Of a stretch of DNA of 32,001 bases, positions 1 to 12,374 are shown in pieces (the stretch's first letter is position 1; every line of letters begins with the position of its first letter). The DNA lies in the NCBI GenBank assembly GCA_012522085.1, contig JAAYLE010000129.1:1-32001 (forward strand), given 5' to 3'. The stretch is from Bacillota bacterium (GTDB lineage: Bacteria > Bacillota > Limnochordia > JAAZLZ01). Made by a program: the position numbers and the translations under genes. The notes under the pieces were generated by a model. The model ran no database searches and had not been told where the DNA came from. It saw only the letters and a list, made by a program, of their open reading frames with translations.

Positions 1-136
1 ACGAGAAGCCACCTCCATGGGTTTTTTTGCCATTAACTCTATTTCGAGGATCGGCTTCTCGTTCCTCTTTCTCAGAGGTCTTCCTCAGTCTCCATCCCAT
101 CTTTTCCCACAAACATTTTACACAGACGTGAGTCTT

Positions 137-889: not shown

Positions 890-926
890 GCGGGCCGGTC
901 CTTTAGCCAGGAACCGGCCCGCTTTT
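890..926 (+). terminator. Rho-independent terminator of the secreted protein gene
   Basis: A perfect 10-bp stem, 890-899 paired with 913-922, has a 13-nt loop and is followed by TTTT at 923-926. It lies 61 bases after the upstream stop codon. The group II intron remnant begins directly after the T-run. Confidence 0.85.
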
Positions 927-1340
927 GTGTGCCGCCGATGGGTTGAAAGAAACCCCGCCTAACTAGCGGGAAGACAATCCGTAGGCAAGGGCGTCACTGG
1001 CAACGGTGGGGTCTGAAGGAAGCCGAAGGAAGAACATGGAACGCAGCGCAAGCGAACCGATGCTGGCCCTTTAGGCGGTTAACCCTGCGACAAGTGGGAA
1101 AGCCCAAAAGCTAGACAGCCTAGGGGGTTTGGACGGACGGATTCATGTTCAGGCAGGCAGACTTGCCTGGGGAAGCCCTGTGTCATCCAAGTCTACTTGG
1201 TAAGCTCGAACAAGCCGGAAGGCAAGGGAGAGAGTAAGTGGTGCAGGGTGGCAGATGAGTCCGTAGTAGTGATGAACGTACGCACGGTTCTGTGAGAGGG
1301 GCAGCGCTAGCACTGATCAGCTAGCGCCGCCCTATTCGAT
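927..1340 (+). mobile_element. Degenerate ORF-less group II intron (class IIC-like)
   Basis: The 5' end reads GTGTGCC followed by ATGGGT, the start expected of IIC introns such as the one from Oceanobacillus iheyensis (recalled from memory, not searched). Domain I-like text follows: a CCCGC/GCGGG hairpin (954-970), a GGCAAGGGCGTC block and TCTGAAGGAAGCCGAAGG. Near 1262-1276 the sequence resembles the lead-in to the reverse transcriptase region, but it jumps straight to the 3' strand of domain V (1277-1290). The reverse transcriptase and the domain V 5' strand with its catalytic AGC triad are missing. A domain VI hairpin follows (1304-1311 with 1320-1327), with a candidate branch-point A at 1334 and an end near 1340. 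About 414 bases remain of a usual 2 kb. It should be unable to splice or move alone. The 3' boundary is approximate. Confidence 0.8.
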
Positions 1341-1362: not shown

Positions 1363-3237
1363 TTACTTGCCTTTCGCGGCGTTGGCGCCTGCAATCCTCC
1401 CGAAGACGAAGATGTCGGCAATGGCGTTGCCTCCGACCCGGTTGCCGGCGTGGATTCCACCGGTGACTTCGCCAGCTGCATACAGGCCGGGGATGATCTT
1501 GCCGTCCTTATTCAACACGTGGCAGTCAGTATCGATCTTCACGCCGCCCATGGTGTGGTGAATGGAAGGCTTCATCGCCCGAGCCATATACGGGGGTTCG
1601 ATGGGGTCGGTGAAGGAGGTCTTGCCGAAGTCAGGATCATAGCCCTGAGCGACAAAGGAATTGTACCTTTCCACTTCGCTCTTCAAGACGGCCGGGTCGC
1701 AGCCGAGCTTGGCCGCCATCTCATCCAGGGTGTCCGCGATGAAGACTACGTGGGACTCGGGAGTGGTGGCAGTACCAAGGCTCTTCAGCTCGTAAAACAG
1801 GGTCCCGTTGGCGAAGGCGGCTTTAGAGATCACATCCCGCTCGGCGTATTCATTGACAAACCTGCGCCCCTCTTGATTGATGTACATCACGTTGGAGCCG
1901 CCGCCCCCGGCGAGGAGACCGGTGTCTGCCCACCCGATGGGCATCAACTGGGTGTAGCCCATCCCGGTCAGATCCGCGCCGACGGCCAGGGCCATGACGA
2001 TCCCCTCCCCGACGATCTCTTTCCGGTTGGTGGTGAGGATGTTTGGATCGAGGTCCGACCAGTAGTTGTTGTACTCGAGCACCATCGCGGTGTTGCCGCC
2101 AAAACCCCCGGTGGCCAGCACAACGCCTTTTGTCCCGAACAGCTCCATGGGCGTGCCATCGGCCATGACGGCTTCAACTCCGACGACTCGCCCATCTTCC
2201 ACGATGAGCTCCTTGCCGGTGACCTCGCACAGTATTTCGCCGCCGTTGTCGGTAATGTACTTGGCCGGCTTGACGAAGAAATCTTCCCACTTGTTGACAG
2301 GCCCGTTGGACCGCTTCCACAGGGATCCGATGGGCTCACCGAGGCGGTCCCTGAAGACGGTGCCGGCAGTCTTCTTGAGCCATTCCTGGGTCTCGAGGCT
2401 CTTGCGGCAAAGTATCTCAATGAAGTCAAAGCTGCCTTCGATGGTGGTTCCGTCCAGACCTTGCCGCTTGCCGGCCAAATAGGTTTGGATCATGTGCAGT
2501 TCCACCGAGTCGAACATCATCGATGTATCACCGGCTAGATAGGTCTCAATCTGCTCCTTAAGTATCCGCAACGTTGGACGAAACTCCGGCGGCAGTTCTG
2601 TCTCCTCCATCTCCAGGAAGGACTGAAGCTTTTGATTCAATCCCGCTGCCGCCGGCGTCTGTGAGCTTAGGGCGGGATTAGCTGCGTTCCATGCACATCC
2701 CGATATCAAAGTATTGCCGCCGATGGACGCGTTTTTCTCAATCACGATGACGGAAGCGCCGTTTTCAACCGCGCTCATCGCAGCGGCGATCCCCGCTCCG
2801 CCCGCGCCAACGATGACAACATCGGCAGTCTTTGTGATTCTTGGGCCAGGCGTCTCCTTGATGACCTTGGCGCGCAAAGCATCGACGTCGCCCCCCGCCT
2901 GCTTCACGCAGGAAGAGACTCCAGCGAGGATTGCGTAGCTGGTGATGGTGGCTCCCGATACGGTGTCCAGGCCTAACGCTTGGTGTTCCACAATTTGCCT
3001 GGGCAGACGCTCGATAGCCGGATCAGCTACTCCCGCGGTTTCTTTGTGTTCGAGGACCTCGACCGAGGTGATGGCATCGCTGCCAAAAGTTGTCGACACC
3101 TTGATCGGTCCGTTGTGTCCCCTCACCTCGGCTACGTACGTGCCGGGGTTGTAGGCGGCGAAGGCCCCGACTGTAAGGGTGAGGAGCAAGAGGAAGACTA
3201 GACAAACAGTGACAGTCCGTTCAGCACCTGTTACCAT
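1363..3237 (-). CDS. Secreted FMN-binding/FAD-dependent flavoprotein reductase, copy 1
   Basis: This 624-residue protein has a signal peptide or N-terminal anchor (about 1-28), then an FMN_bind domain (about 29-115) with a DTVSGAT flavinylation motif in which Thr97 would carry covalent FMN added by ApbE. A FAD_binding_2 domain follows, starting with a GAGGAG dinucleotide fold near 144-149. It belongs to the fumarate/urocanate reductase-like flavoproteins. HHTMGG and an AGNRVGG arginine motif near the C-terminus, plus an AERD arginine, resemble catalytic elements of that family. The usual Gln-x-His-Pro motif reads QLMP (Met432), so the substrate is probably not fumarate. There is no CxxCH haem site. 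The start is ATG 3237, preceded by AAGGAGGT; a longer frame to 3336 has no ribosome binding site. It is a tandem paralogue of the gene at 3563-5452. It probably reduces an organic acceptor outside the membrane; the substrate is unknown. Confidence 0.88.
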   Translation of the reverse strand: MVTGAERTVTVCLVFLLLLTLTVGAFAAYNPGTYVAEVRGHNGPIKVSTTFGSDAITSVEVLEHKETAGVADPAIERLPRQIVEHQALGLDTVSGATITSYAILAGVSSCVKQAGGDVDALRAKVIKETPGPRITKTADVVIVGAGGAGIAAAMSAVENGASVIVIEKNASIGGNTLISGCAWNAANPALSSQTPAAAGLNQKLQSFLEMEETELPPEFRPTLRILKEQIETYLAGDTSMMFDSVELHMIQTYLAGKRQGLDGTTIEGSFDFIEILCRKSLETQEWLKKTAGTVFRDRLGEPIGSLWKRSNGPVNKWEDFFVKPAKYITDNGGEILCEVTGKELIVEDGRVVGVEAVMADGTPMELFGTKGVVLATGGFGGNTAMVLEYNNYWSDLDPNILTTNRKEIVGEGIVMALAVGADLTGMGYTQLMPIGWADTGLLAGGGGSNVMYINQEGRRFVNEYAERDVISKAAFANGTLFYELKSLGTATTPESHVVFIADTLDEMAAKLGCDPAVLKSEVERYNSFVAQGYDPDFGKTSFTDPIEPPYMARAMKPSIHHTMGGVKIDTDCHVLNKDGKIIPGLYAAGEVTGGIHAGNRVGGNAIADIFVFGRIAGANAAKGK

Positions 3238-3281
3238 CGGTAGACCTCCTTTTGAAGAAAAAGTCTGAGCAAGTGCGCACA

Positions 3282-3311
3282 ATAACAATAGTTCCCTACA
3301 ACAAGGGTCAA
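3282..3311 (-). promoter_or_regulatory. Sigma-A-type promoter of flavoprotein copy 1
   Basis: On the minus strand, TTGACC (3306-3311) lies 18 bases before TGTTAT (3282-3287), about 45 bases upstream of the start codon. The same layout recurs upstream of copy 2 in closely similar flanking sequence, which supports it as a real promoter that was duplicated with the gene. Confidence 0.55.
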
Positions 3312-3459
3312 TTCCTGCCAAGAGGCGCCAACTCATTTCTACAGGTGACTGCCCATAGTCCCAAGATTGCCTTTAGTGTCAGCCGAAGGCAAGCTCGGCC
3401 AGGTTCTCACTGGGACCCGTAGATTTCCAACGCCTCGGTCGATTTTCCGAGTGGTAAGT

Positions 3460-3478: not shown

Positions 3479-3501
3479 CAGGGCAGGAGGATGCCTAGGC
3501 A

Positions 3502-3539
3502 AGCAAGCAGGCACCGGACGGAGACGGTGCCTGCTTGCT
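3502..3539. terminator. Strong hairpin downstream of flavoprotein copy 2
   Basis: A perfect 15-bp stem (3502-3516 with 3525-3539) with an 8-nt loop lies 23 bases past the stop codon of the minus-strand gene that starts at 5452. The minus strand lacks a clean T-run after the stem; on the plus strand CATTTT follows. It is placed as a terminator for copy 2, but the weak tail leaves doubt. Confidence 0.5.
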
Positions 3540-3562
3540 CATTTTGGGAGGGCTTGGTGAGG

Positions 3563-5452
3563 TTACTTCCCTTTCGCGGCATTGGCGCCGGCTATTCTGC
3601 CGAAGACGAAGATGTCGGCAATGGCATTGCCTCCGACCCGGTTGCCGGCGTGGATGCCACCGGCGACTTCGCCAGCTGCATACAGGCCGGGGATGATCTT
3701 GCCTTCCTTATTCAACACATGGCAGTCAGTGTCGATCTTCACGCCGCCCATGGTGTGGTGAATGGAAGGCTTCATCGCCCGAGCCACATAGGGGGATTCG
3801 ATGCGATGGGTGAAGGAGGTCTTGCCAAAGTCGGGATCATAGCCTTGATCGACAAAGGAGTTGTACCTTTCCACCTCGCTCTTCAAGACGGCCGGATCGC
3901 AGCCGATCTTGGCCGCCAGCTCCTCCAGGGTGTCGGCGATGAAGACCACATGGGACTCGGGGGTGCCGACAGGAGTGACAAAATCAGAGCCCAGGGTCTT
4001 AAGCTCATAGAACAGGGTCCCAACGGCGAAGGCGGCCTTAGAAATCACATCCCGCTCGGCATATTCATTGACAAACCGCCGGCCCTCCTGACTGATGTAC
4101 ATGACGTTAGAACCGCCCCCTAATGCGAGGAGGCCAGTGTCTGCCCAGCCGATGGGCATCAACTGGGTGTAGCCCATCCCGGTCAGATCTGCACCGATGG
4201 CCAAGGCCATGATGATCCCTTCACCGATGATCTCTTTCCGGTTGGTGGTGAGAATGTTCGGATCGAGCTCCGGCCAGTAGTTGTTGTACTCGATAACCAT
4301 CGCGGTGTTGCCGCCGTAGCCGCCGGTGGCCAGCACAACGCCTTTCGCGGCATAAAGCTCCATGGGCGTGCCATCGGCCATGACGGCCTTAACCCCGACG
4401 ACTCGCCCGTTTTCTACGATGAGCTCCTTGCCGGTGACCTCGCATAGTATCTCGCCGCCATTGTCGGTGATGTACTTGGCCGGCTTGACGAAGAAATCTT
4501 CCCACTTGTCGACAGGCCCGTTGGCTCGCTTCCAAAGGGACCCGATAGGCTCTGCGAGTTCGTCCCTGAAGACTGTGCCGGCGGTCTTCTTGAGCCACTC
4601 CTGGGTCTCGAGGCTCTTACGGCAGAGTATCTCAATGAAATCGAAGCTGCCTTCGATGGTGGTTCCATCTAGACCTTGCCGCTTGCCGGCGAAGTAGGTT
4701 TGGATCATATGCAGCTCGACCGAGTCGAACATCATCGACGTATCGCCGGCCAGGTAGGCTGCAATCTGCTCCTTGAGGGTCTTTAAGGTTGGGCGAAACT
4801 CCGGCGGCAGTTCGCCCTCATCCATCTCCAGGTACGACTTCAGCTTTTCATTCAATCCCATCGCCGCCGGCGTCTTGGAGCTGAGGGCGGGATTGGCCGC
4901 GTTCCAAACGCATCCCGACACCAAAGTATTGCCGCCGATGGCCGCGTTTTTCTCAATTACAATGACCGAAGCGCCGTTTTCCACTGCACTCATCGCCGCG
5001 GACATCCCTGCCCCGCCGGCGCCGATGACGACGACATCAGCAGTCTTCGTGATTCTTGGACCAGGCGTCTTTTTGATGACCTTGGCCCGCAAAGCATCAA
5101 TGTCGCCCCCTGCCTGCTTGACGCAGGAAGAGACTCCAGCGAGAACCGCGTAGCTGGTGATGGTGGCCCCCGATACAGTGTCGAGGCCTAACGACTGATG
5201 CTCCACAATTGCCTTAGGTAGACGCTCGATCGCGGGAGTGCCTACGCCTACAGTCTCATTGTGGTCGAGGACCTCGACTGAGGTGATGGCATCCCGACTA
5301 AAAGTGGCCGATACCTTGATTGGTCCGTTGTGTCCCCGCACCTCTGCTACATATGTGCCGGGGTTGTAGGCGGCGAAGGCGCCGACGGTGAGGGTGAGCA
5401 GCAGGGTGAGGGCGATGCATAAGGTGGCAGCCCGTTTAGCACCCGTTAACAT
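3563..5452 (-). CDS. Secreted FMN-binding/FAD-dependent flavoprotein reductase, copy 2
   Basis: At 629 residues it has the same architecture as copy 1: signal segment (about 1-28), FMN_bind domain with D91 to T97 (DTVSGAT, Thr97 the predicted flavinylation site), then a FAD_binding_2 domain with GAGGAG at 144-149. Most aligned residues match copy 1. The length difference of five residues comes from an insertion around SDFVTPVG, before a shared TPESH. The altered QLMP motif (Met432), HHTMGG and AGNRVGG are all kept, so both copies probably act on the same or similar substrates. ATG 5452 is preceded by GGAGGAGG. No haem motif, membrane partner or ApbE is visible nearby, so the electron donor is unknown. 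The family is clear; the substrate is not. Confidence 0.88.
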   Translation of the reverse strand: MLTGAKRAATLCIALTLLLTLTVGAFAAYNPGTYVAEVRGHNGPIKVSATFSRDAITSVEVLDHNETVGVGTPAIERLPKAIVEHQSLGLDTVSGATITSYAVLAGVSSCVKQAGGDIDALRAKVIKKTPGPRITKTADVVVIGAGGAGMSAAMSAVENGASVIVIEKNAAIGGNTLVSGCVWNAANPALSSKTPAAMGLNEKLKSYLEMDEGELPPEFRPTLKTLKEQIAAYLAGDTSMMFDSVELHMIQTYFAGKRQGLDGTTIEGSFDFIEILCRKSLETQEWLKKTAGTVFRDELAEPIGSLWKRANGPVDKWEDFFVKPAKYITDNGGEILCEVTGKELIVENGRVVGVKAVMADGTPMELYAAKGVVLATGGYGGNTAMVIEYNNYWPELDPNILTTNRKEIIGEGIIMALAIGADLTGMGYTQLMPIGWADTGLLALGGGSNVMYISQEGRRFVNEYAERDVISKAAFAVGTLFYELKTLGSDFVTPVGTPESHVVFIADTLEELAAKIGCDPAVLKSEVERYNSFVDQGYDPDFGKTSFTHRIESPYVARAMKPSIHHTMGGVKIDTDCHVLNKEGKIIPGLYAAGEVAGGIHAGNRVGGNAIADIFVFGRIAGANAAKGK

Positions 5453-6840: not shown

Positions 6841-8025
6841 ATGAAAAAGCCGAGACTTGGCCTTGCAGTCTTCGCGGTAGTCGGCATCATCGTTTTAGTA
6901 CTGGTCGGAGTTAGGATCAACCAAGGGATCAAGAGCCGGGGGCAGGCGGTGAGCCAAATGGACTTACGACCCCGGATAGATCCAATCAGCGTCCAGGTGG
7001 AACTAGTGAGTCGAGGCACGGTGGAAGAGGTCGCCGTCCTTTCCGGCAGTCTGGAACCTTGCTACCAGGTGGATGTATCACCCCGCAGAGCGGGGCGCCT
7101 GGCTAGTGTGGCGGCGGAAGTTGGGCAGCGGGTCAAGCCGGGGGATGTCCTGGCGGTGATGGAACATGATGATCTGCTGCTGCAAGAGCAGCAGTCCCTC
7201 GCAGCCCTGGCGGCCAGCCGCGGGAGCCTTAAGCGGGCCCAGGCCCAGCGGGACAGGGTGCAGGCGGATTATGAGCGCATCAAACGGCTCTATGAGGAGC
7301 GAGCGGCCACCCAGCAGGAGCTGAAGAACGTCCAAAACCAGCTGGAAGAGGCCAATATCCAGCTGGAGATCGCCAAGGCTCAGCTCGATCAGGCCGAGGC
7401 CAACTACGCGCTGCTCCAGCTCCAGTTGAGTCAGGCCGTCATCGAAGCCCCTGTTGAGGGGGTCGTCATGGAGCTGCACGCGGTGCCAGGAAGTCAAGTG
7501 GGCGCCAACTCGCCCCTAGCGGCCATTGCCGGCATTGATCCCATTGAAGTTGTCTTTTTCATCTCCGAGCGGGATATCGGCCGCGTCCATAGCGACCAAG
7601 AGCTGACTGTCTACGTTGATGCCTTTCCCGACCGGGCCTTTCCCGGCGCAGTTGCTCGCTTGGGAGCGGCGATCGAACCCCGCACCCGCACTCTCCAGGT
7701 TAGGGGCCGGCTCCCCAACGAGGGACTCCTCCTTCGTCCCGGCATGTTCGCCCGGGTGGAGCTGGTGATGGCGCGGGCGGAGGAAGTCTTGACCATACCT
7801 CGGGAAGCTTTAATGACCAGCACAACCGGCTACTACGTTTACGTGGCCAAAGACGGCACGGCCCGAATGCAGACGATTCAGATAGGGCTCCAAGGCGCCG
7901 AGCAGGTCCAAGTCATCGCCGGGCTGCAAGAGGGGGATGCGGTCATCACCGTAGGCCAACAAAGGCTCCAAGATGGACGGCCAATCCGGGTCATCGACGT
8001 TAGCGATGGAGGGAGAGGCCGATGA
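6841..8025 (+). CDS. RND efflux periplasmic adaptor (membrane fusion protein)
   Basis: This 394-residue protein links an inner-membrane RND pump to an outer-membrane channel. It has an N-terminal membrane anchor (about 6-26, no lipobox), a first half of a lipoyl-like domain (VDVSPRRAGRLASV, then GQRVKPGDVLAVME), a long coiled-coil hairpin rich in Gln, Glu and Ala, the second lipoyl half (IEAPVEGVVMELHAVPGSQV), a beta-barrel domain ending in LLLRPGMFARVEL, and a membrane-proximal C-terminal domain. I chose ATG 6841 because GGGAGGATTGGGC precedes it and the anchor follows at once; the frame is open from 6754 but without a good site. Its stop overlaps the next start as ATGA, so translation of the pump is probably coupled. 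The exported compound cannot be predicted. Confidence 0.93.
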   Translation: MKKPRLGLAVFAVVGIIVLVLVGVRINQGIKSRGQAVSQMDLRPRIDPISVQVELVSRGTVEEVAVLSGSLEPCYQVDVSPRRAGRLASVAAEVGQRVKPGDVLAVMEHDDLLLQEQQSLAALAASRGSLKRAQAQRDRVQADYERIKRLYEERAATQQELKNVQNQLEEANIQLEIAKAQLDQAEANYALLQLQLSQAVIEAPVEGVVMELHAVPGSQVGANSPLAAIAGIDPIEVVFFISERDIGRVHSDQELTVYVDAFPDRAFPGAVARLGAAIEPRTRTLQVRGRLPNEGLLLRPGMFARVELVMARAEEVLTIPREALMTSTTGYYVYVAKDGTARMQTIQIGLQGAEQVQVIAGLQEGDAVITVGQQRLQDGRPIRVIDVSDGGRGR

Positions 8026-11000
8026 ACATCTCCCGCTTTGCCGTCCATCGTCCCGTGACCACCGCGATGATCTACATCGCGGTCACCCTCCTGGGGCTGT
8101 TTGCCCTCGGTCGGCTGGCCATCGATCTGATTCCCGAGCTGGCCTTTCCTTCCCTCAGCATAACCACTTCTTACTCCGGCGTTGCTCCGGAAGAGATCGA
8201 AAGCTTGATTACCATCCCCATCGAACAGGCCGTCAGCACCGTTAGCGGTGTGATCGGCATGGACTCTTTGTCCCGGGAAGGCAGCTCCCGCGTTACGCTG
8301 CGGTTCCCGTGGGGGACGGACTTGGAGGCGGTCACCAACGAGGTCCGGGCCAGTGTGGAGCGGGCCCGGTCTCGTCTGCCCTCAGAGGCGAGCGCCCCCT
8401 GGGTTGGGCGGTTTGACCCATCCCAGATGCCCATCATGACCCTTGGCCTGAGCGGCGAACTGGACTTGGCGGAGCTTCGCCGCCTAGCTGCAGAGGAAAT
8501 CACCTACTATCTTGAGCGGATCGATGGCGTGGCCGCAGTGACGGTCCAAGGGGGCCGCAGCCGGGAGGTCCGGGTGGAGCTGGACCAGGCTCGTCTGCAA
8601 GCCTACGGCCTTACCATCGAGCAGATCGTCCAGGCCATCAGGGCCGAGAATTTCAACGTCCCTGCGGGCAGGATCGTCGTCGGGCAGTCCCAGTTTTCCC
8701 TGCGTACTTTAGGGGAGTTGAGGGCCGTCGAAGAACTGGAAGCCATCCTCGTGGCCAATCGGGAGGGGGTGTCCATCCGGCTGGGGGACGTTGCCCAGGT
8801 CCGGCCGGTAACCGAAGATGCTGGCGCCATCGTTCGGGTCGACGGCATGCCGGGCGTGACTATTTCCATCCAGAAGCAGTCGGGCGCTAATACGGTGCGG
8901 GTGGCTGATGCCGTTCGCCAGACGGTGGATGAGCTGTCCCTCCGCTACCCGAACCTGCGCATCAGGCCCCTCAACGACAGCTCCCGCTTCATCCGCCAAG
9001 CGGTCAACAACGTAATGCGCGCGGGGATCATCGGCGGGCTGTTGGCGGCCTTGATCCTGCTCTTTTTCCTGGGGAGCCTTCGCTCAACCCTAATCATCTC
9101 CATTGCCATCCCCGTATCCATCATTACCTCGTTCATCCTGATCGATTGGGCGGGCATGACCTTGAACATCATGTCCTTGGGGGGCCTTGCCCTGGGGATT
9201 GGCATGCTGGTCGACAACTCCATTATCGTCTTGGAGAATATCTACAGACATCTTAGAGAGGGAAGGGCGCCAAAGGAGGCAGCTGTGGACGGCAGCGGCG
9301 AGATGGCCATGGCGGTCATCGCGTCCACCTTGACCACCCTGGCGGTCTTTCTTCCCTTGATGTATCTCACGGGGATGACGGGCATCCTGTTTCGGCAGTT
9401 GTCGCTGATGGTGGCCTTTTCGTTAACATGTTCATTGACAGTCGCCTTGACGCTGGTTCCTTTCCTTTGCTCCCGGCTGCTTAAGGCAGGGAGAAATGCT
9501 AGACATCTAGATCTGGTTCTCGCCGGCCTTGAGGAAGCCTATGGACACGTGTTGGCTAGTGCCGTCAGGCGCCCCGGAGTAGTGATTTTCACTGCCTGCC
9601 TGCTGATTTTGTTTAGCTTGGGACTCATCCCCTACCTGGGCAGCGAGTTTTCGCCTACCACCGATGAAGGGGAGTTTTCCATCAGTTTCTCCCTTCCGCC
9701 GGGAACCCTCCTGGGGACTACCGATGAAATGGTCCGTCGGGTTGAGCAGTTGGTGCGGGAGATGGTTCCGGAGCTGCAGTACATCAATGCCCGCGCCGGG
9801 TCAGGGGGAGGCCAGGGGGGAGGTATGGGCTTTGTGAACGTCACCCTGGTTCCCCGCAACCAACGGGCCAGGTCGACGCAGGAGATCATCGCGGAGGTAA
9901 GGGAAAAGCTGGCGGACATCCCCGGACCTACCTTTCGGGTGAGGGCCCAAAGCAGCTTCGCTGAACGGTTGGCCGCGGGCAGCCTTGGTGGTTCCTCAGA
10001 ACGCATCACCATCAATGTTCAGGGGCAGGATCTAGACTTGGTGCGGGCGGCGGCCGAGGACCTGCGGGAAATAGTCAGCCAAGTGCCCGGGGTGGTCAAC
10101 GCAGGCCTGAGTCGGGAAGAGACCCAGCCGGAATTCGTCCTCCGGGTCGATCGGCACCGGGCGTCGGAATTTGGGCTGACGACGTCGCAGGTGGCCAATG
10201 CGGTCCAAGCGGCTGTTCAAGGGCGCGTTGCCACCCAACTCCATGTCAACGGTCAGGAATACGGCGTTCGAGTGCAGCTTGCCGGTGCCGACAGCCTGTC
10301 GCCAAAGGAGATTGAGGTCTTGCCAGTCTCCATCGGAGGCGGAGCTTACGTCCCCCTTCACACCGTGGCCAGGTTGAGCCTGCAAGACAGCCCGGCGGCG
10401 ATTGAACGGCTTAACCAGAAGCGGACGGTGCGGGTGACCGCATCTCCCGAGGGGCGGGATCTAGGCAGCGTCATGGGGGACATCCAGGCTGCTTTGGCGG
10501 GCGTTGAACTGCCGGAAGGGGTGACCATCCATTATGGAGGGGAATGGGAAGAGCAGCAGCGGGCCTTTCGGGAGATGCTGACAGTGTTGTGTCTTGCCGT
10601 CTCCCTAGTCTACATCGTCATGGCTTGCCAGTTTGAATCCCTGTTGGATCCCCTTATTATCATGTTTTCCGTTCCCTTCGCGTTGGTAGGAGTCGTCATT
10701 ACGCTCCTCATCACCGGCACGCCCTTGACTACCCAGGCGCTGATGGGCCTTATCATGCTGGGGGGGATTGTGGTGAACAATGCCATCGTCCTTGTCGATT
10801 ACATAAATTTGCTCCGTTCGCGGGGAGCGTCCCTGGATGAAGCGGTCGTTGCCGGCGCTAAAACGAGGCTGCGCCCCATCTTGATGACGACGGGAACGAC
10901 TTGCCTGGCCCTGGTTCCCCTGGCCCTGGAACTGGGCGAAGGGGCGGAGATTCAGGCGCCCCTGGCCAGGACGGTCATTGGCGGTCTGTTGGCGGCAACC

Positions 11001-12374
11001 TTGGTCACCTTGGTTTTGATCCCCACCATTTATCGTGCAGTCCATCGCCGAGGAGTTCACCGGGCCGCTTCAGCTATGCTGGTGCTGATCTTGCTGCTGG
11101 CATCGCCTGGGGCTCTCGCCCACGGGGCCATCACCCTGGAAGAGGCCTTTGCCCAGGCCCTAGAGACTAACCATCGGCTGCTGCAGGCCCGCTGGAAATT
11201 GGCGGCGGCTGAGTCCAAGCTCAGGGAGCTGGAAGGGAGCCGAGGACCCCATCTGACCCTCGATGGCGAGTGGCAGGCGACCGAGCCCGTCCAACGGGCC
11301 GGGGTGGCGTTCACCGTGCAAGGGTCCCTGCCCACCACGGAGCCCATAAGCTGGCAGCTGGCCCGACTGGCTGTGGAAGGGGCCAAGGGGGAGCTGGCGG
11401 ATGAGGAAGAAGTCGTCAAGCTTGCTGTCCTGACGGCCTATGTCGATGTGTTAAAGAGCCAGGGGGCAGTCCAGGTGGCGAGGCTGGTTCAAGAACAGCT
11501 AGCGGCTTTAGTTGAGCAGGCCAGGAGGCGCAAGGAGCTGGGGATGGCGGGGGAGTTGGAGCTTCGGCAGGCCCAGGCCCAGTACCGGGCGGGGGAGCTC
11601 GCCTTGGCCAGGGCGGAAAACAGGCTGGCGCTGGCCCGGGCCCGTTTGGCCCAAGAAATGGGCGCCCCCCTGCCGGAGGAGGGTGAGCTGCTGCCGATAC
11701 CCCTCGATGCACTCGCAGTCGAAGTGGACGGCGCTTTAGATCGGCGCTGGGATGTTGCTCAGGCTCGGCTGCGGCTGAGGCAAGCGGAGCTGCAGGCCAA
11801 GGCAAGGATCCCGGGCGATCGACCGGCCCTATCTGTAAGCGGCAGTCTTCGGGGCGATGAGGGGAGCGCCAGGCTTGCCTGGGACACCAAGGGTCGGGCC
11901 CTATCCCTCACCGTGCAGCGGGACCTCCTCCAGTATGGCGATCGGCCCTCAGGGAGCTTCCAGGAGGAGGGCTGGTCGGTGAATGTGGGCATCAGCTGGC
12001 CCATCTTCGATGGAGGAGAGGAAAAGGAGCGCTCCCTCCAGGAAGAACTGGACCTGGAGCAGCTGCGATCCGCCTTGGCCCAGCAGGAGGTGTCGGCTTC
12101 CCTGGCGATTCAAGATGCCCTCCTGGCTGCCGAAGAAGCCGAGGCCCAGGTGGAGCTTGCTCATCTTGACTGGCAGATGGCTGAGGAACGGCTCAAGCTC
12201 GTGGAGGAAGGACTGGCCATCGGAGCGGAGACGACCCATAGGCTCCTTGAGGCCGAAATTGCGGTGGAGAGAGCTAAACAAGCTTGGCAGGAAGCTCAGT
12301 GGAATGCGCTGCTGGCCCGGGCGCGGCTTCGTCGGGCGGCAGGACAGCCGGTGTGGATGGAAGGGGAGGATTGA
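8022..12374 (+). CDS. RND efflux pump fused in frame to a TolC-family outer membrane factor
   Basis: This is a single 1450-codon frame. Residues 1-1018 form a complete HAE1/AcrB-type RND transporter: N-terminal cytoplasmic start MNISRFAVHRPVTT, two large periplasmic loops, twelve expected membrane helices, and the helix-4 motif GMLVDNSIIVLEN near residue 397. Residues 1019-1033 look like a signal peptide (MLVLILLLASPGALA) preceded by Arg/His. Residues 1034-1450 form a TolC-type outer membrane efflux protein with both helical repeats and both beta-strand regions (near HLTLDGEW and ISWPIFDGG). No stop or good ribosome binding site separates the two parts; the nearest GAGGAG is about 20 bases before the internal ATG at 11076. 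The product could be cleaved after Ala1033. ATG 8022 overlaps the adaptor stop by 4 bases. The next gene begins 2 bases after the stop. Confidence 0.92.
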   Translation: MNISRFAVHRPVTTAMIYIAVTLLGLFALGRLAIDLIPELAFPSLSITTSYSGVAPEEIESLITIPIEQAVSTVSGVIGMDSLSREGSSRVTLRFPWGTDLEAVTNEVRASVERARSRLPSEASAPWVGRFDPSQMPIMTLGLSGELDLAELRRLAAEEITYYLERIDGVAAVTVQGGRSREVRVELDQARLQAYGLTIEQIVQAIRAENFNVPAGRIVVGQSQFSLRTLGELRAVEELEAILVANREGVSIRLGDVAQVRPVTEDAGAIVRVDGMPGVTISIQKQSGANTVRVADAVRQTVDELSLRYPNLRIRPLNDSSRFIRQAVNNVMRAGIIGGLLAALILLFFLGSLRSTLIISIAIPVSIITSFILIDWAGMTLNIMSLGGLALGIGMLVDNSIIVLENIYRHLREGRAPKEAAVDGSGEMAMAVIASTLTTLAVFLPLMYLTGMTGILFRQLSLMVAFSLTCSLTVALTLVPFLCSRLLKAGRNARHLDLVLAGLEEAYGHVLASAVRRPGVVIFTACLLILFSLGLIPYLGSEFSPTTDEGEFSISFSLPPGTLLGTTDEMVRRVEQLVREMVPELQYINARAGSGGGQGGGMGFVNVTLVPRNQRARSTQEIIAEVREKLADIPGPTFRVRAQSSFAERLAAGSLGGSSERITINVQGQDLDLVRAAAEDLREIVSQVPGVVNAGLSREETQPEFVLRVDRHRASEFGLTTSQVANAVQAAVQGRVATQLHVNGQEYGVRVQLAGADSLSPKEIEVLPVSIGGGAYVPLHTVARLSLQDSPAAIERLNQKRTVRVTASPEGRDLGSVMGDIQAALAGVELPEGVTIHYGGEWEEQQRAFREMLTVLCLAVSLVYIVMACQFESLLDPLIIMFSVPFALVGVVITLLITGTPLTTQALMGLIMLGGIVVNNAIVLVDYINLLRSRGASLDEAVVAGAKTRLRPILMTTGTTCLALVPLALELGEGAEIQAPLARTVIGGLLAATLVTLVLIPTIYRAVHRRGVHRAASAMLVLILLLASPGALAHGAITLEEAFAQALETNHRLLQARWKLAAAESKLRELEGSRGPHLTLDGEWQATEPVQRAGVAFTVQGSLPTTEPISWQLARLAVEGAKGELADEEEVVKLAVLTAYVDVLKSQGAVQVARLVQEQLAALVEQARRRKELGMAGELELRQAQAQYRAGELALARAENRLALARARLAQEMGAPLPEEGELLPIPLDALAVEVDGALDRRWDVAQARLRLRQAELQAKARIPGDRPALSVSGSLRGDEGSARLAWDTKGRALSLTVQRDLLQYGDRPSGSFQEEGWSVNVGISWPIFDGGEEKERSLQEELDLEQLRSALAQQEVSASLAIQDALLAAEEAEAQVELAHLDWQMAEERLKLVEEGLAIGAETTHRLLEAEIAVERAKQAWQEAQWNALLARARLRRAAGQPVWMEGED
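11076..11120 (+). other. Internal signal-peptide-like segment at the RND/TolC junction
   Basis: These codons encode a hydrophobic stretch ending in the signal peptidase I-type site ALA before HG. The preceding residues (HRRGVHRAAS) are positively charged, which fits a cytoplasmic side. After twelve RND helices the chain would be in the cytoplasm, so this segment would cross outwards and place the TolC part in the periplasm. Cleavage is inferred. Confidence 0.65.

What the first reader, a model, noticed from the sequence alone, without database searches (positions are those of the whole stretch)
927..1340. Fossil group II intron lacking its reverse transcriptase and half of domain V
The 5' end, domain I text, domain V 3' strand and domain VI with a branch A are recognisable, but a deletion joins the lead-in of the ORF region directly to domain V. 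The catalytic AGC strand is lost, so it cannot splice. Such a clean internal deletion is informative about how these elements decay.
Basis: partly seen in the sequence, partly recalled or inferred. Interest (0 to 1): 0.55.

Follow-up and report, generated by a model that had tools for sequence, protein, structure and literature searches.

The report
Broken remnant of group IIC intron

Summary
The finding holds. Window 927-1340 (414 nt) is a group IIC intron remnant directly behind a terminator-like hairpin. Rfam RF02001 matches 994-1161 (54.9 bits, gathering score 32). Blastn against relatives splits the element at one point: 934-1277 matches the 5' part, and 1277-1340 the 3' end, of intact introns about 2.1 kb long that encode a GsI-IIC-like reverse transcriptase. 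About 1657 bp is missing relative to one intact relative. The junction (1-nt overlap) falls in the domain V (D5) loop, so the AGC strand is gone; RF00029 (D5-D6) scores 15.3 bits here, 32.8-45.1 in nine relatives. Only 4 of 219 columns invariant in nine relatives are substituted, so the copy looks recently broken, not long eroded. No RVT_1 domain was found in this 93%-complete genome. Internal deletions are common in this family: 25 of 62 scorable copies (one ambiguous); in 4 besides the window the break lies in D5. A D5 breakpoint hotspot is at most a weak, post-hoc lead. Mimicry of D5 by the lead-in was tested and not supported. Ordinary new member of a known kind.

The parts
890..926 (+). 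Terminator-like hairpin and T-tract, the 5' exon of the insertion
   Evidence: Fold -26.9 kcal/mol, 0 of 200 shuffles as good; hairpins in the same place in most relatives printed
927..1340 (+). Group IIC intron remnant, 414 nt
   Evidence: RF02001; blastn to relatives; ends compared with relatives and with published consensus
933..934 (+). 15-nt deletion point: the first hairpin of the intron is missing
   Evidence: Comparison with relatives and with own contig C196
955..956 (+). 3-nt deletion point (TGT in relatives)
   Evidence: Alignment with nine relatives
994..1161 (+). D1-D4 core matched by RF02001
   Evidence: 54.9 bits, gathering score 32
1249..1276 (+). Domain IV / ORF-region lead-in, up to the junction
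   Evidence: Near-invariant in relatives, where it continues into the RT region
1276..1278 (+). Deletion junction (1-nt overlap, C1277); about 1657 bp missing relative to L064, including the RT and the D5 5' strand
1277..1290 (+). Surviving 3' strand of domain V
   Evidence: Identical to the same strand in several intact relatives
1291..1340 (+). D5-D6 linker, domain VI and intron 3' end
   Evidence: Fold -28.5 kcal/mol, z -4.7; aligned with relatives

Best explanation
A group IIC intron retroelement inserted behind the terminator of the upstream + strand gene. It then lost, by a deletion with almost no homology at its ends (1-nt overlap), the domain IV ORF region with its reverse transcriptase and the 5' strand of domain V; two small deletions hit domain I. 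Shown: the intron identity, both ends, the deletions and the main junction. Inferred: without the D5 5' strand the RNA cannot splice or move, so the copy is an inert scrap between two convergent genes. Which step made the deletion is not shown; I think a DNA deletion after insertion more likely (about 60%) than a jump of the intron's own reverse transcriptase during insertion (about 30%).
For: RF02001 54.9 bits; two-piece blastn pattern in intact relatives, break at the same query base 354 in most of them; junction sequences; 424-aa RT ORF in L064, best PDB match GsI-IIC RT; RF00029 15.3 bits here against 32.8-45.1 in nine relatives; no RVT_1 in the own genome; other internal deletions in the family.
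Against: Only one genome shows this junction (searches found no other; the own genome may be left out there). Loss of splicing was not tested. Few substitutions mean there is no sequence sign of long neutral decay. The genome is 92.73% complete, so an RT elsewhere cannot be excluded.
Confidence: 0.92

Rival explanations
1. It is a working ORF-less intron, spliced or mobilised in trans by an RT encoded elsewhere, with the lead-in (GAGTCCGTAGTAG) standing in for the lost D5 strand.
For: ORF-less introns that proliferate in trans are known (PMC2882425, passages). The junction region can fold into a D5-like hairpin.
Against: That fold is no better than shuffles (z 0.21, 115 of 200 as good). RF00029 is far below its gathering score (15.3 against 40). 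No RVT_1 in the genome. No second copy with this junction.
Confidence: 0.03
2. The deletion was made at birth: the intron's reverse transcriptase copied D6 and the 3' strand of D5 and then jumped to the D4 lead-in while the copy was being inserted.
For: Both intron ends are kept while the inside is missing, and the break lies in the D5 loop. Five of 21 internal-deletion breakpoints within 260 nt lie in the 25-nt D5, binomial p 0.045.
Against: The excess is weak and was looked for after seeing the data; three of the five come from one genome (G092). The lead-in is not among the 12 best duplex partners of the D5 3' strand in L064. The two small domain I deletions point to ordinary DNA deletion as well.
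Confidence: 0.3
3. Assembly artefact: a contig that wrongly joins the two ends of an intron.
For: Fragmented assembly (223 contigs); introns of this family often lie at contig ends.
Against: The junction has only a 1-nt overlap, so there is no repeat to join on, and similar internal deletions occur in other genomes, some held in very few contigs (for example G205, one contig).
Confidence: 0.04

Closest known systems
Group IIC (class C) introns inserted after intrinsic terminators (PMC4424553, PMC8919778, PMC4028801; passages)
   Same: Terminator-hairpin insertion site, D1-D4 core, D6, 3' end CCTAYTCGAT, relatives with a class C-like RT
   Different: No RT, no D5 5' strand, first hairpin deleted
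ORF-less introns of Thermosynechococcus elongatus (PMC2882425, passages)
   Same: About 1.5-1.7 kb of domain IV with the ORF deleted, both intron ends kept
   Different: There the deletion leaves an active ribozyme, one ancestral deletion spread to 17 copies; here D5 is cut and no other copy with this junction was found
FRE652, a fragment of RmInt1-like introns (PMC5894124, passages)
   Same: Inert group II fragment that lost its protein gene
   Different: FRE652 covers DI-DIII and part of DIV and lacks the 3' end; here both ends are kept

Membership tests
Group II intron, subgroup IIC (as a remnant) | D1-D4 core matched by a group II covariance model | tested here: met
   RF02001 54.9 bits, gathering 32
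Group II intron, subgroup IIC (as a remnant) | Intact domain V with catalytic AGC strand | tested here: not met
   5' strand replaced by D4 lead-in; RF00029 15.3 bits against gathering 40
Group II intron, subgroup IIC (as a remnant) | Domain VI and 3' end | tested here: met
   Alignment and fold; one base off the published 3' consensus
Group II intron, subgroup IIC (as a remnant) | 5' consensus GUNYGCCNRGCAUGG | tested here: not met
   GTGTGCC is kept, the following RGCATG is lost in the 15-nt deletion
Group II intron, subgroup IIC (as a remnant) | Insertion directly after an intrinsic terminator | tested here: met
   Hairpin 890-922 plus T-tract
Group II intron, subgroup IIC (as a remnant) | Class C reverse transcriptase | tested here: inconclusive
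   Absent here and no RVT_1 in the own genome; present in intact relatives
Group II intron, subgroup IIC (as a remnant) | Splicing activity; EBS-IBS pairing; branch-point A | not tested
   No experiment; pairings were not mapped
ORF-less functional group II intron | Complete ribozyme core with a related RT available in trans | tested here: not met
   D5 cut; no RVT_1 in a genome 92.73% complete

The most novel reading that the evidence does not exclude
Domain V is a preferred breakpoint in IIC introns: their reverse transcriptase tends to leave or switch template inside the D5 hairpin, giving copies that are dead on arrival, with both ends intact but no D5 5' strand. The window copy would be one such product.
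Probability: 0.1. Interest if true: 0.45.

Novelty: new member of a known kind. Interest (0 to 1): 0.15.

Why it matters
Modest. It is a precisely mapped case of intron death by internal deletion, and the accompanying survey suggests that internal deletion is a common fate in this IIC family (25 of 62 scorable copies, one ambiguous). If D5 proved to be a true breakpoint hotspot, intron decay could be tied to the behaviour of the reverse transcriptase on structured RNA.

Tried and rejected
D5 mimicry: the lead-in resembles a D5 5' strand (GAGtCCGTAG), but the junction fold is no better than shuffles, and in L064 the lead-in is not among the 12 best duplex partners of the D5 3' strand. Dropped.

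D5 breakpoint hotspot: first suggested. Follow-up with shorter patterns: of 64 places with at least 250 nt upstream, 2 (L246, L252) look like chance matches; of the other 62, homology is uninterrupted in what is held for 27, 25 have an internal deletion (L171 ambiguous) and 10 another break. Of 21 internal-deletion breakpoints within 260 nt (L171 left out, the near-identical L210 and L261 counted separately), 5 lie in D5, p 0.045; of 23 within 350 nt, p 0.021. Some D5 breaks are insertions: an IS in L257, mobile-element genes next to L230. Breaks further downstream than the patterns reach could not be seen. Kept only as a weak lead. My automatic flag for the D5 5' strand (123 of 136 places) is an upper bound: it wrongly passed L258 and let L158 through with one mismatch.

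Empty-site test: no orthologous site was found. In the same-genus genomes, the G002 contig C44 match belongs to the paralogous intergenic stretch at 3485-3616, not to this site.

Plasmid search gave 8 records with partial matches (17-40% of the query), phage search none.

Full report
The element. Window 927-1340 reads as a group IIC intron on the + strand. Rfam RF02001 (D1-D4 core) is the only gathering-level hit in the 32-kb window, at 994-1161, 54.9 bits. It lies behind a terminator-like hairpin at 890-922 and ends at 1340; similarity to the paralogous intergenic stretch at 3541 starts at 1341. The published IIC boundary consensus is GUNYGCCNRGCAUGG and CCUACYCGAU (PMC4028801, passages). The window shows GTGTGCC at the 5' end and CCTATTCGAT at the 3' end.

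The deletion. Blastn of 924-1340 found matches in 28 of 60 genomes of the set 'relatives' (the own genome included) and in 71 of 398 genomes of the phylum (likewise). In intact copies the window sequence falls into two pieces: query 11-354 and 354-417. In L064 (G324) the two pieces lie about 1657 bp further apart than in the window. The left side in relatives reads GATGAAC|CTTCAG and the right side GTGGCC|CGTACGCACGG; the window reads GATGAAC|GTACGCACGG, so the two share one C. The lost stretch includes the RT (424 aa in L064; YADD motif; best PDB match GsI-IIC RT) and the 5' strand of D5. RF00029 gives 15.3 bits here against 32.8-45.1 in the nine of ten relatives that hold this D5-D6 (the tenth, L097, lacks the 3' end; a second, different intron in L079 scores 54.3). 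RF02001, by contrast, scores 54.9 here and 41.3-65.8 in the seven relatives listed for it: the core is about as well kept as in relatives.

Further damage. At 219 columns invariant in nine relatives the window has 4 substitutions and 10 deleted columns. The copy is therefore broken but little eroded.

Is anything left working? The own genome (92.73% complete) has no RVT_1 match at E <= 0.01. A second place, at about C196:5893-5938, holds only the first part of an intron before unrelated sequence that runs to the contig end. The exact junction was not found in genome contigs or viral contigs, though the own genome may be left out of those. I infer that the copy neither splices nor moves.

How usual is this? 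Searches for the D5 3' half and the fetched stretches gave 136 places, keyed by downstream sequence. Of 64 with at least 250 nt upstream, 2 look like chance matches; of the other 62, 27 run uninterrupted in what is held, 25 carry an internal deletion (one, L171, ambiguous) and 10 have another break. Internal deletions ending inside D5: the window, L045 (G280), and L211, L258 and L259 (all three from G092). L258 joins about 34 nt of the intron 5' end straight to the D5 3' half. Other D5 breaks: L257 is an IS insertion and L230 lies next to mobile-element genes; L269 and L271 have no intron sequence upstream in what is held. A hotspot in D5 is not established (p 0.02-0.05, post hoc).

How it came about. 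Both ends are kept and the junction has almost no homology, which fits an illegitimate DNA deletion after insertion; a jump of the reverse transcriptase during insertion would leave the same product. The evidence here does not separate the two.

Known context. A majority of bacterial group II intron copies are said to be truncated (PMC4028801, abstract text as shown). ORF loss by a deletion of about 1.5 kb in DIV, with later spread, is described for T. elongatus (PMC2882425, passages); loss of the protein gene and persistence of fragments for RmInt1 (PMC5894124, passages). Searches, of which I saw listings, showed no title about D5 as a breakpoint; that is no proof that none exists.

Taxonomy. 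The window's own organism was not identified.

Verdict. Observation confirmed, interpretation supported with two refinements, ordinary in kind.

Noticed in passing
window 3-128: Interspersed repeat: also at 3 further places in the own genome (one weak) and 8 in G002, mostly at contig edges; it looks like the end of a mobile element. The listed ORF 17-829 overlaps it.
   Followed up: partly
window 1363-3336 and 3563-5452 (- strand): Tandem copies of a FAD/FMN-binding flavoprotein gene, 86% identical in DNA.
   Followed up: no
window 8022-12374: One ORF of 1450 aa joins an AcrB-type RND pump (residues 3-1008) and an outer-membrane efflux domain (1238-1441).
   Followed up: no
L258 (G092:C1:180880-183000): Extreme mini-remnant: about 34 nt of intron 5' end joined to the D5 3' half and D6.
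   Followed up: no
L257 (G177:C1): An insertion sequence with a transposase-like ORF sits inside D5 of an intron, at the GTAC of the 3' strand.
   Followed up: partly
L069 (G275:C8:260600-263500): Two introns in tandem: the second starts one base after the 3' end (CGAT) of the first, as if D6 had served as terminator-like target.
   Followed up: no
L009 5893-5938 (G000:C196): Second intron 5' end in the own genome, behind a terminator, cut after about 45 nt; the rest of the contig is unrelated.
   Followed up: no
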